Positions 45,809 through 49,293 of a stretch of DNA of 64,000 nucleotides are shown here, piece after piece. The stretch is from positions 1-64,000 of the forward strand of contig VGOD01000001.1 in the NCBI GenBank assembly GCA_016876015.1, read 5' to 3'. The stretch is from Chloroflexota bacterium. Lineage in GTDB: Bacteria > Chloroflexota > Anaerolineae > CG2-30-64-16. Every line of letters begins with the position of its first letter. Within the stretch, counting starts at the first letter, position 1. The notes under the pieces are model-generated. The model did no database searches, was not told the DNA's origin, and saw nothing but the letters and a program-made list of their open reading frames with translations. The position numbers and the translations under genes were made by a program.

Positions 45809-46356
45809 TGGCTCTTCTTCCGCCGCGACGCGTTCCTGCCCGATGCCCGCGGCCGGTCGTTCGTGCAGCAGGTGCGCGAAGGCTCGGCCACCTATGCCAG
45901 GCGCGTCAGCGACAAGCTGAAGGAGCTGGTCTTCGACGAGGTGATGCCGGAGATCGCTAACGGCTTTGTGGCCCACCGCCGCGCGCAGTTGGGCATCGGT
46001 GAGGAGACCGACGCCAGCCTGCGCGAGATCTACGCCGCGGGGCTGAGCCTGCTCTACAAGCTGCTCTTCGTACTCAATGCTGAAGCACGCGACCTGCTGC
46101 TGATGCGCAACCCCGGCTATCGCGAGCAAAGCCTGACCAGCCTGGCGGCGTGGGCGGCCGAACGGCTTGATCGCTCCCTACCGCTCAGCGAGGCCGCCTG
46201 CGCCACGCCCCGCTACGACGCGCTGCTGGCCCTCTTCCGACGCATTGACCGCGGGGATCTCAGCCTGGGCATCCCGCGCTACGACGGCGGGCTCTTCAGC
46301 GCCGACACGCTCGAAAACCGCTTCCTGGAGCGCCACAAGCTGAGCGATCGCGCAGT
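45809..46356 (+). pseudogene. internal fragment of an Eco57I-type restriction-modification methylase
   Basis: The frame WLFFRRDAFLPDARGRSFVQ, then GSATYARRVSDKLKELVFDE, LGIGEETDASLREIYAAGLS LLYKLLFVLNAEARDLL and IPRYDGGLFSADTLENRFLE matches the middle of large type IIG/Eco57I-like methylases (also seen in BREX and DISARM relatives). The SAM-binding N-terminal half and the target-recognition C-terminus are missing. It joins an ATPase fragment on the left (TGA at 45806) and a 40-bp palindrome on the right. It is a relic of a defence gene. Confidence 0.65.
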
Positions 46357-46396
46357 GGCAGAGATGCCATCTCTTCGAAGAGATGGCATCTCTGCC
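46357..46396. repeat. 40-bp perfect palindrome at the methylase/IS110 junction
   Basis: GGCAGAGATGCCATCTCTTC followed immediately by its exact reverse complement, with no loop. It lies exactly where the methylase fragment ends and the IS110 fragment (opposite strand) ends. Confidence 0.9.
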
Positions 46397-47169
46397 GTTG
46401 GCGCACCTGGGCCATGGCCGGTTCCTGGGAGTCGCGGATGGCGGTGCGGCGCTCGGTTTCCAATTCCAGGATTTGACGCTGCACGAACTGCCAGCACGCG
46501 AACTCGCGGCGCAGGCGGGCGGCCAAGCCGTCCGGCAAAGATGCACCGTCCCAGAGACGCAGTTCCGGCAGGTGCGTCAGGAAGTCGGCCGCCACCTCGA
46601 GGCGAATGCCCTGGCCGACCAGCAGCGCTTTGATGCGGTTGACGTAGCGGGTGCGCTCGCCTTTCAGAGCCAGCAGTTGGCGGTGGAGTTGGCGCTGCGC
46701 TTCGGCGGCAAGGCTGGGCACTTGGACGACGCTCCAGACCCGCGTAGCGCCGCCATGGTAGCGCAGCAGCATGGACAGCAGCTTTTCGACGTCCAGGCGG
46801 TCGGTCTTGGCGTGCTTGCCGCGGCGGCTGACCTCGATGCTGGCCGAGTCCACGACCAGGCTTCGTCGTGAGCTCAGCCGAACGGTTGGTCACGTGCTCG
46901 TGTTCCAGGAAGCGGTGCAGCCAAAAACCGTCGCGGCCCGCTTCGTAGCAGCTCAGCACCGGTGCATCGGTGGGTAAGCCAAAGCGCTGTTTGGCCAGCG
47001 CGATCTCCTGCTTGAGCGCCGTCGTGTCACCGGCCGTGATCTTGCGCTGCCGTGGGGATTGGCCCAGGCCGACCGTGAAGCCCAGCTTCCAGTCCTGGTT
47101 GCTCAACTCGAAGGCCAGGTACAGGGTGGGTTGGGTGTTTTCGTCTTTGGTGTAACGCGTCTGTTTCAT
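46363..47169 (-). mobile_element. IS110-family insertion sequence remnant
   Basis: The transposase starts at ATG 47169 (MKQTRYTKDENTQPTLYLAF) with the DEDD domain pieces VLSCYEAGRDGFWLHRFLE and, in another frame, LVVDSASIEVSRRGKHAKTD RLDVEKLL and RTRYVNRIKALLVGQGIRLE. Near 46865-46895 an extra stretch of about 25 bases breaks the frame. The C-terminal Tnp_20 domain with its serine is absent, so the element is dead and truncated at the 40-bp palindrome. Terminal repeats were not identified, as expected for IS110. Confidence 0.75.
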
Positions 47170-48431
47170 GGTATACTCCTTTCTGCGGGGCAGCTTACCA
47201 TCAATGCCGCGCCCGGCCAAGCCCCATAGTATCTGACGGCTGCGCCGGTACGGTCAGGGGTCGCGAGAGTACGTGAGCCGCAGGCGCAGGTGAACCTGAC
47301 CGTTGTGCGCCAAGAAGCTTGGCGTTTCTGACAGGGTGCGAGTCCCTGTGGGGCAAGGGCTAACCACCCACCCCTATCGAGTGTTGCAACACGGACGGAG
47401 GAACGTAGACCGGTTGGAGGAGTGACCGCCGCAGGGAAAACCTCGGCGTCGGGAGGCGAGCGCGCAGCGCCCCGACGAGCCTGGCAACAGGGACACAAAG
47501 CCGCTGCGCCGTGACCGAACCACCGTGTTGAAGCGTACACCCTGGCCTGGCCGCCAGGGCAGGCAGAGTAGCCACCAGGCCGCAGGGGTGATCGCACACC
47601 CCGAAGTTTGATACAGCCTCGTTAAGACAATAAAGCAGACGGCGATGCGTTAACGGCCGCAGAAGCCTACACAGAGCGCACGCTTTGGTGAGTGCGCCGA
47701 GGGTCTGCCGGGGTCTCCAAAGAGCGCGGCATGGGGCAGAGAAACGTCACAGAACTTGGGAGGCCCCAACCTTTCCTGGGAAGACCAGGCAGGCGGACGC
47801 GAAGCACAAGTAGGGAAGCCGCACAGGGTTGGGGAGTCAGATCAGCTCATAGTACTCTGAGCCGGGCGAACCGGGCACATGGGGAAGGGGCTGCCAGAAA
47901 GACGGAGCTTGCAAAGGAAACGCTGTCTGGACATGCCGGATCAGAGCACAGTGCCCACCTCCCTGCAAGGATTAGCGAACAAGGCTGCCAACCAGCCGAA
48001 CTACCGGTTTCGCAACCTCTACGGGCTGTTGAACGAGGACCTGCTGCTAGACTCCTGGACGCTGGTGCGCCAAGACGCCGCCCTCGGCGTGGATCGCGTC
48101 AGTGCGCAGGACTACGAGCAGGACTTGGCCGCCAACGTCCAAGACCTCGTGACGCGGCTCAAGGAGAAGCGTTACCATGCCAAACTCGTCAGACGGAGCT
48201 ACATCCCGAAAGCCGATGGCAAGCTACGGCCATTAGGGATCCTGGCCACGGAAGACAAGCTGCTGCAACCCTAAAGGGGGCCTGCGGCTCCTGGCCGTCA
48301 AACGTGTTCTGGAGGCCATCTATGAGCCGGACTTCTTGCGCTGCTCCTACGGCTACCGCCCGCAGGTCGGGGCGTTGGACACCGACGGCAAAGTGCTGCA
48401 TCCCACCACGGGTACACCGCAAGGGGGCATC

Positions 48432-48472
48432 ACACCTGCACTTGCGCCGGAGCGCAGCGCAGGTGCAAGTGT
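48432..48472. repeat. 41-bp inverted-repeat element, copy 1
   Basis: Starts ACACCTGCACTTGCGC and ends GCGCAGGTGCAAGTGT around CCGGAGCGCA, so the ends are an imperfect inverted repeat. It is inserted after GTPQGGI of the reverse transcriptase, where the family reads GGIISP, and adds 14 residues without shifting the frame. Confidence 0.85.
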
Positions 48473-48566
48473 CTCGCCGATCCTGGCGAACATCTACCTG
48501 CACTATGCGCTCGATCTCTGGTTTCACAAAGTGGTTGTGCCCCGCGGTCGCGGCGAAGCCTGCTTG

Positions 48567-48607
48567 ACACCTGCACTTGCGCCGGAGCGCAGCGCAGGTG
48601 CAAGTGT
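48567..48607. repeat. 41-bp inverted-repeat element, copy 2
   Basis: Identical to the copy 135 bases upstream, in the same orientation and phase. It splits the stretch that normally reads L-V-RYADD just before the catalytic YADD. Confidence 0.85.
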
Positions 48608-49192
48608 TCGCTACGCCGATGACTTCGTCTGCGCCTGCGAGTACGAGGCTGAGGCGCAGCGGTTCTACGGGGCGCTGGGAGAGCGTCTCGCCAAGTTCGG
48701 CCTGACGCTGGCGGCCGCCAAGACCCGGATCATTCCGTTCAGTCGCGGCGCGCGCCAGGGCCAGACCAGCTTCGACTTCCTGGGCTTCGAGTTCCGTTGG
48801 GGCCATGACCGGGCGGGCAAACCGCAAGTCAAACGCCGCACGGCGCGCAAGAAGCTCAGAAGCGCCCTTCTGAACTTCAAAGTCTGGTGCAAAGAGAATC
48901 ACCATCGCCGCCTCAAAGACCTGTTCGCACGGCTGAACGCCAAGCTCCGGGGCTACTATCAGTACTATGGCATCCTGGGCAACGCCGACAGCCTGCACCA
49001 GTTCTTCTATGGCGCGATGCAGCATCTCTTCCGCTGGCTCAACCAGCGCAGTCAACGCACCAGCTCCACCTGGACGGGGTTCCAGGAACTCATCCAGCAG
49101 TTCGGCATCGTGAAACCGAAGATCGTGGCATATCCCAAAACGCGAGCGGCGCGTTCGGCGGCCTAAGCCGCGGCGAGAAGCGAGTCTTTCTG

Positions 49193-49229
49193 AAGAGCCC
49201 GGTGCGGGAAATCCGCACGCCGGGATCTG
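49193..49229 (+). ncRNA. group II intron domain V
   Basis: AGAGCCCGGTGCGGGAAATCC and the following GCACGCCGGG form the 34-base domain V hairpin with its GAAA tetraloop; domain VI follows at about 49230-49267. Confidence 0.75.
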
Positions 49230-49293
49230 TGCGGGGGCAGCCGGGCAACTGGCTGTCCTACCGCGATAGGCGCGGAGGGAGAGTTATTCGAGA

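What the first reader, a model, noticed from the sequence alone, without database searches (positions are those of the whole stretch)
48432..48607. Identical 41-bp palindromic element inserted twice, in phase, at the catalytic core of a reverse transcriptase
Both copies are identical over 41 bases, both add TPALAPERSAGASV, and both lie at conserved core motifs (GTPQGGI|SP and L|RYADD), 135 bases apart. The ends are inverted repeats. The length of 42 bases per insert keeps the frame. This is like the in-frame palindromic elements known from Rickettsia, but inside a mobile element's own gene. The identity suggests recent spread, or gene conversion between the two places.
Basis: seen in the sequence. 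Interest (0 to 1): 0.75.

Follow-up and report, generated by a model that had tools for sequence, protein, structure and literature searches.

The report
In-frame palindromic inserts in Anaerolineae genes
The two identical inserts in this broken reverse-transcriptase gene belong to a large, apparently undescribed family of very short (about 27-51 base) DNA palindromes. They seem to jump around genomes of Anaerolineae bacteria and are often found inside working genes, where they almost always add a short peptide without breaking the reading frame.

Summary
In detail: two identical 41-mers at 48432-48472 and 48567-48607. The insert itself is 39 bp (CAC...GTG). It was placed between A and T of an Ile codon, without target duplication, and adds 13 residues. 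The nearest related reverse transcriptase (62% identical) lacks both. The host gene is a group II intron reverse transcriptase that is already dead: an inferred 22-bp frameshift, and 61 residues lost including a catalytic Asp. In this genome the 39-mer occurs only there, but exact copies sit in three other Chloroflexota genomes, one in frame in a multicopper oxidase.

A relaxed search found the wider family in 64 of 396 Anaerolineae genomes (about 380 copies, reversed-pattern control 2). Members are imperfect palindromes with a conserved left/right asymmetry and variable centres. Exact empty sites confirm insertion at A|T. In-frame copies lie inside intact SerRS, PolA, FtsK, PEP-synthase-like and other genes. 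Where an open frame of at least 200 aa crosses the site, 24 of 26 inserts are multiples of three. Most variants are stop-free in all six frames.

It works like Rickettsia palindromic elements but shares neither sequence nor the GTAG/CGTC tag. The mobilising enzyme is unknown; trans-mobilisation as a single-stranded hairpin is inferred.

The parts
48433..48471 (+). Palindromic element, copy 1 (39 bp CACCTGCACTTGCGCCGGAGCGCAGCGCAGGTGCAAGTG), between A48432 and T48472 of an inferred ancestral ATC (Ile) codon; adds 13 residues at GTPQGGI|SP
   Evidence: sequence shown directly
48568..48606 (+). Palindromic element, copy 2, identical and in the same orientation, between A48567 and T48607 of an inferred ancestral ATT (Ile) codon; adds the same 13 residues at CL|RYADD
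48336..49166 (+). 3' part of the group II intron RT/maturase ORF (pseudogene) carrying both elements: RVT_1 and GIIM domains
47879..48274 (+). 5' part of the RT ORF, ends at a premature stop; different frame from the 3' part
48269..48290 (+). 22-bp extra sequence (CCCTAAAGGGGGCCTGCGGCTC) with a stop codon, shifts the frame; inferred, because the relative is masked at this place
   Evidence: inference
48374..48381 (+). Junction of a 183-bp in-frame deletion (61 aa, includes the VVEADIRGFFD motif with a catalytic Asp) between short TGGA(C) repeats
47339..47723 (+). Group II intron RNA, domains I-IV (Rfam RF02005)
49193..49267 (+). Group II intron RNA, domains V-VI (Rfam RF00029)

Best explanation
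The two inserts are copies of a non-autonomous mobile palindromic element family that is widespread in Anaerolineae. The element is CACCTGCRCT-N(variable)-GGYGCAAGTG, most often 27 bp, here 39 bp. It inserts between A and T (rarely A and A) with no target duplication and no loss of bases [shown]. Because the sequence is nearly always stop-free in all six frames, and because frame-breaking insertions are removed by selection, copies inside genes are mostly multiples of three and add 9-13 mostly small residues such as TPALAPGASV [length bias and open frames shown; selection inferred]. When A|T falls in an ATN codon the gene keeps ACA...GTN (Thr...Val). That is the commonest phase, and both copies here have it [shown]. 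The hairpin-like form, the absence of target duplication and the conserved left/right asymmetry suggest mobilisation in trans as a folded single strand, by an HUH/Y1-type enzyme or a similar single-strand recombinase [inferred, enzyme not found; I would give this step alone about 0.35]. The intron's RT gene was hit twice, at two Ile codons, probably when it was already decaying or dead, and possibly in an earlier host [inferred].
For: Same 39-mer in three other Chloroflexota genomes, in frame in a multicopper oxidase and in an integron-type integrase pseudogene. Family in 64 of 396 class genomes, with a near-zero reversed control. DNA-level empty sites, 28 of 28 bases identical, in the same genome: L118 against L190 and L219 against L216. 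RT empty sites in G510. In-frame copies in genes with intact domains: SerRS, PolA, PPDK_N/PEP synthase, LuxR, PNP, glycosyltransferase, FtsK, NACHT, CHAT-STAND, acyltransferase, radical SAM. An open frame of at least 200 aa crosses the empty site for 24 of 61 inserts of length 3n, against 2 of 29 others; Fisher p = 0.0012. 50 of 63 unique elements are open in all six frames, against 11% of shuffles. Asymmetric ends 86 against 8 symmetric. Flanks in all held copies: 94 A|T, the real exceptions being A|A or its reverse T|T, plus sub-matches inside longer copies.
Against: No transposase is linked to the copies: no Y1-type gene within about 1.5 kb of the sampled copies, and no longer autonomous version with the same ends in the loci held. 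Flanks show no extra consensus beyond A|T and no hairpin preference, so target choice is weakly explained. The 41-mers fold well as DNA hairpins, but the 27-bp elements barely exceed shuffles. Mobility is inferred from empty and filled sites, not observed. The 63 unique elements are related, so the six-frame result is not 63 independent tests. Many genomes are metagenome assemblies.
Confidence: 0.72

Rival explanations
1. The two copies in the RT arose from one insertion, and the second copy was made by gene conversion or local duplication.
For: Identical sequence and orientation, 135 bp apart, and no other close copy in the genome.
Against: Flanks differ, each site is a clean insertion relative to the relative's sequence, and identical 39-mers exist in three other genomes, so two independent insertions of one master sequence suffice.
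Confidence: 0.15
2. The elements are regulatory or RNA hairpins (REP-like transcription terminators or mRNA stabilisers) that only happen to overlap genes.
For: Many copies are intergenic and hairpin-like, and several sit inside other palindromic repeats or repeats such as GTCA|TTGCGAGG.
Against: Conserved asymmetry against perfect pairing, in-frame copies deep inside intact genes and precise A|T insertion point to mobility first. A regulatory use of some copies is not excluded.
Confidence: 0.12
3. Assembly or library artefact (adapter-like oligonucleotide captured in metagenome assemblies).
For: The exact 39-mer appears in several metagenome assemblies from different projects.
Against: Dozens of sequence variants, the A|T rule, mod-3 behaviour in genes, and presence in single-contig or very large-contig assemblies such as G005 and G619.
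Confidence: 0.02
4. The inserts are an ancestral part of this RT lineage.
For: Both are in frame at core motifs.
Against: The nearest relative lacks them, and the sequence is found in unrelated genes.
Confidence: 0.01

Closest known systems
Rickettsia palindromic elements (RPE; Ogata 2000/2002, as summarised in PMC10969869 and PMC3733652)
   Same: Dispersed palindromes inserted in frame in unrelated, apparently functional genes, adding a compatible peptide; mobilising enzyme unknown
   Different: Here 25-53 bp adding mostly 9-13 aa, against RPE of about 150 bp (PMC10969869); no CGTC terminal tag (reported for R. conorii RPEs in PMC3733652); other phylum; A|T target; open in six frames
GTAG- and CGTC-tagged REP families (Di Nocera 2013, PMC3733652), including GTAG-23 of Thermomicrobium roseum and intragenic REPs, some twice in one gene
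   Same: Imperfect palindromes of 20-40 bp, multi-copy, some intragenic (including DNA polymerase I), some nested in other palindromes
   Different: No GTAG or CGTC at the ends; no RAYT/Y1 gene seen near the copies; A|T insertion; conserved CACCTG/CAAGTG asymmetry
MITEs
   Same: Non-autonomous short inverted-repeat elements
   Different: No target-site duplication; one 27-51 bp palindrome instead of two terminal repeats around a body
Group II intron retroelement (the host gene here)
   Same: Intron RNA domains and RT/maturase homology present
   Different: The RT is broken, and the palindromes are unrelated to intron mobility

Membership tests
Rickettsia palindromic element-like protein-coding palindromes (kind, not family) | Palindromic repeat dispersed in several unrelated genes of one clade | tested here: met
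   64 of 396 class genomes; many unrelated genes
Rickettsia palindromic element-like protein-coding palindromes (kind, not family) | In-frame insertion within apparently functional genes | tested here: met
   Fisher p = 0.0012 for multiples of three at gene-crossing sites; SerRS aligns full-length to solved SerRS. Function of the proteins was not tested.
RPE families of Rickettsia | CGTC end (RPE-4, RPE-6) / sequence shared with RPEs | tested here: not met
   Ends are A|CAC...GTG|T with no fixed flank tetranucleotide; RPE sequences themselves were not aligned
GTAG/CGTC REP superfamilies | Terminal GTAG or CGTC tetranucleotide | tested here: not met
   Position counts around 81 unique sites show only A|T, which the search pattern itself required; exceptions are A|A or T|T
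GTAG REPs / RAYT system | Associated Y1 (RAYT) transposase gene flanked by the repeats | tested here: inconclusive
   Only one Y1 gene in about 1.08 Mb of held loci, beside the RT relative and not beside a copy; whole genomes were not screened
MITE | Target-site duplication | tested here: not met
   Exact empty sites show no duplication
IS200/IS605-type single-strand transposition | Insertion without duplication, 3' of a fixed tetra/pentanucleotide, by a Y1 enzyme | tested here: inconclusive
   No duplication, but only A|T is fixed and no enzyme was identified
Functional group II intron | Intact RT/maturase ORF | tested here: not met
   Stop and frameshift at about 48270, 61-aa deletion, two inserts; RNA domains are present

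The most novel reading that the evidence does not exclude
A previously undescribed family of 25-53 bp transposable palindromes, mobilised in trans by an unknown single-strand recombinase with a minimal A|T target. It has evolved, or been filtered, to be readable in all six frames, so it can sit inside essential genes (SerRS, PolA, FtsK) and supply short linker peptides across the Anaerolineae.
Probability: 0.4. Interest if true: 0.8.

Novelty: new variant of a known kind. Interest (0 to 1): 0.62.

Why it matters
In-frame protein-coding palindromes are best known from Rickettsia, and how they move is unsolved. A second, apparently independent system in a distant phylum, with clean empty sites, a simple A|T target, a very small unit and in-frame copies in named housekeeping genes, makes two old questions testable: which enzyme moves such elements, and whether 'selfish' DNA supplies new protein linkers. 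It also warns annotators that TPALAP..GASV-like stretches in Anaerolineae proteins are insertions.

Tried and rejected
The exact 39-mer is absent from IMG/VR, and plasmids and phages gave only chance-level matches. A relaxed 39-mer pattern in 400 phylum genomes found nothing but the window, which first suggested a rare element; loosening the centre and length revealed the family. The intron has no DNA-level relative in 400 phylum genomes and none covering most of it in plasmids. I first placed the insert before GT, or after a 1-bp duplication; empty sites and the A|A cases showed A|T placement. Flank palindromy as a target signal was tested and rejected: 2.89 matches against 2.90 in shuffles. 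Longer autonomous versions with the same ends were looked for; none were found, only repeated copies near ffh. Symmetric palindromes from IMG/VR (for example CACCTGCACCCCTTTAGGGGTGCAGGTG) were set aside as different things. Literature searches for the sequence and for the element in Chloroflexi/Anaerolineae gave no description; the library holds open-access papers only.

Full report
What is in the window. The two 41-mers ACACCTGCACTTGCGCCGGAGCGCAGCGCAGGTGCAAGTGT are exact, at 48432-48472 and 48567-48607. No shuffle of the window contains one at up to three mismatches. They lie in the 3' open frame (48336-49166) of a group II intron reverse transcriptase/maturase (Pfam RVT_1 and GIIM). Intron RNA domains I-IV and V-VI are recognised on either side.

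The gene was broken anyway. The 5' frame (47879-48274) ends in a stop, and the 3' part is in another frame. The best reading is a 22-bp extra stretch at 48269-48290; this is inferred from frames, because the relative is masked there. Alignment with the nearest RT found (G510, 62% identical) shows that the window lost 61 residues, including the motif with a catalytic aspartate, between short TGGA(C) repeats. In-phase insertion at the core therefore cannot be read as proof of a tolerated insertion in a working enzyme.

The size and place of the insert. The G510 relative reads GTPQGGI-V-SP and CL-I-RYADD. Each window insert therefore adds exactly 13 residues, or 39 bp. Read as CAC...GTG, both fall inside an ATN codon: ATC A|TC TCG and TTG A|TT CGC. 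The ATN codon becomes ACA...GTN, which is why the inserts read T...V. For the RT sites alone, placement just before a GTN codon would fit equally well; the A|T placement is fixed by the DNA-level empty sites described below.

It is not confined to this gene. A scan of genome contigs found the exact 39-mer in three other Chloroflexota assemblies. One copy (L005) is intergenic, between A and A of what is probably a CCGGCTGAAGCCGCGACTCC repeat. One (L006) is in frame in a multicopper oxidase, in the other orientation. One (L007) is in an integron-type integrase pseudogene. In the window's own genome (6.5 Mb, 533 contigs) no other copy exists at up to three mismatches, and the core is unique too. 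Identity of the two copies is thus simply identity to a widespread master sequence.

It is a large family. Searches of the three positive genomes and of the window's own family found variants with other centres and lengths. The pattern ACACYTGCRCN{5,35}GYGCARGTGT then matched 64 of 396 genomes of the class, about 380 copies (sum of the forward column), at up to 30 per genome; the reversed pattern matched twice. Of 123 distinct copies tabulated, net lengths are mostly 27 (52), 28 (27), 39 (9) and 29 (7). Of the genome copies, 86 have unlike ends (CACCTG...CAAGTG or its complement) and only 8 have the like ends of a perfect palindrome. The asymmetry is therefore conserved. In the full-length hairpin it leaves a mismatch at the outer hexamers.

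Insertion mechanics. The left and right flanks of several copies were found joined, without the element, elsewhere. In the same genome, L118 matches L190 and L219 matches L216, each at 28 of 28 bases. L197 matches L195 in another contig of its genome; L136 and L138 match other genomes with mismatches. There is no target duplication and no loss. Among held copies the flanks are A|T in 94; the true exceptions are A|A or, read the other way, T|T, and the remaining rows are sub-matches inside longer copies. The class search demanded A...T, so the unbiased evidence for A|T is the empty sites plus the earlier core and arm searches. No further target consensus and no flank palindromy were seen. Many intergenic copies are nested in other dispersed repeats.

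Relation to genes. With the element removed, an open frame of at least 200 aa crosses the site in 24 of 61 cases when the insert is a multiple of three, and in 2 of 29 otherwise (one of those two a transposase already carrying another insert); Fisher p = 0.0012. Open frames of this length can be spurious in GC-rich DNA, so the named cases matter more. Named hosts include SerRS, PolA (in the 3'-5' exonuclease domain), PPDK_N/PEP synthase, a MalT/LuxR regulator, a PNP-family nucleosidase, a group 1 glycosyltransferase, FtsK, NACHT-HEAT and CHAT-STAND proteins, an acyltransferase, an O-antigen ligase and a radical SAM protein. The SerRS aligns over its whole length with solved SerRS structures; the extra residues follow SKEIGK in the N-terminal domain. 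Most use the readings TPALAP..GASV or TLAP..ASAGV; a few use the LHLH..QVQV frame (L222, L207) or the Cys-rich frame (L059). 50 of 63 unique elements are open in all six frames, against 11% of shuffled copies; since the copies are related, this is one inherited property and not 63 tests.

How it most likely works. Shown: dispersed family, precise A|T insertion without duplication, bias to in-frame lengths in genes, near-universal absence of stops, conserved asymmetry. Inferred: mobility in trans; a single-strand, hairpin-recognising enzyme; selection removing frame-breaking insertions. The enzyme was not found: no Y1 gene lies near sampled copies, no longer element with the same ends was seen, and folding energies of the 27-bp elements are not exceptional.

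Comparison with what is known. The behaviour matches Rickettsia palindromic elements and intragenic REPs. PMC3733652 reports intragenic GTAG/CGTC REPs, some twice in one gene, some in DNA polymerase I, GTAG REPs in Chloroflexi, and CGTC ends on R. conorii RPEs. PMC10969869 reviews RPEs. Here neither tag is present, there is no duplication as in MITEs, and the unit is smaller than an RPE. No held paper contains the sequence in a relevant context. I therefore file it as a new variant of a known kind: it works like an RPE and is not a member of the RPE or GTAG/CGTC families.

Limits. Many sources are metagenome assemblies, but several copies are in very large contigs (G005, G337, G619, G666). Mobility is inferred from empty sites, not observed. 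The window genome is listed at 5.5% contamination, and the two copies lie on one 163-kb contig, so the contig could in principle be foreign.

Noticed in passing
window 46279-47220 (- strand): Frameshifted IS110-type (DEDD) transposase remnant immediately upstream of the group II intron; weak Pfam match below the curated cut-off.
   Followed up: partly
window 47335-49270: Group II intron with complete recognised RNA domains but a dead RT: possibly dependent on trans-acting maturases. No DNA relative in 400 phylum genomes.
   Followed up: partly
window 48269-48290: 22-bp extra stretch CCCTAAAGGGGGCCTGCGGCTC that breaks the RT frame; origin unknown, no second copy in held loci.
   Followed up: partly
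G000:C106:7159-7207 (L107, L251): A third, different palindrome with like ends and another centre in the window's genome (net 47 bp); membership in the family unclear.
   Followed up: no
L137, L211, L237, L238, L249, L130, L133, L136: The palindromes repeatedly hit another dispersed repeat, GTCATTGCGAGG, at GTCA|TTGCGAGG in several genomes: nested small repeats.
   Followed up: partly
L206, L207, L129/L225: Identical or near-identical longer flanks CGCAAGGACA[..]TCGGGACGAT around copies in different genes (L206 and L207 are in one genome), so a composite repeat seems to spread as a unit, including into genes.
   Followed up: partly
L157, L161, L164, L171 (IMG/VR contigs): A perfectly symmetric palindrome (CACCTGCACCCCTTTAGGGGTGCAGGTG and its CACTTG variant) in similar surroundings in several viral contigs; looks like an operator or terminator, not this family.
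   Followed up: no
L085/L022 (G541:C42:437-489): A longer copy with an extra hexamer on each arm (51 bp), suggesting that the arms can grow by hexamer units.
   Followed up: no
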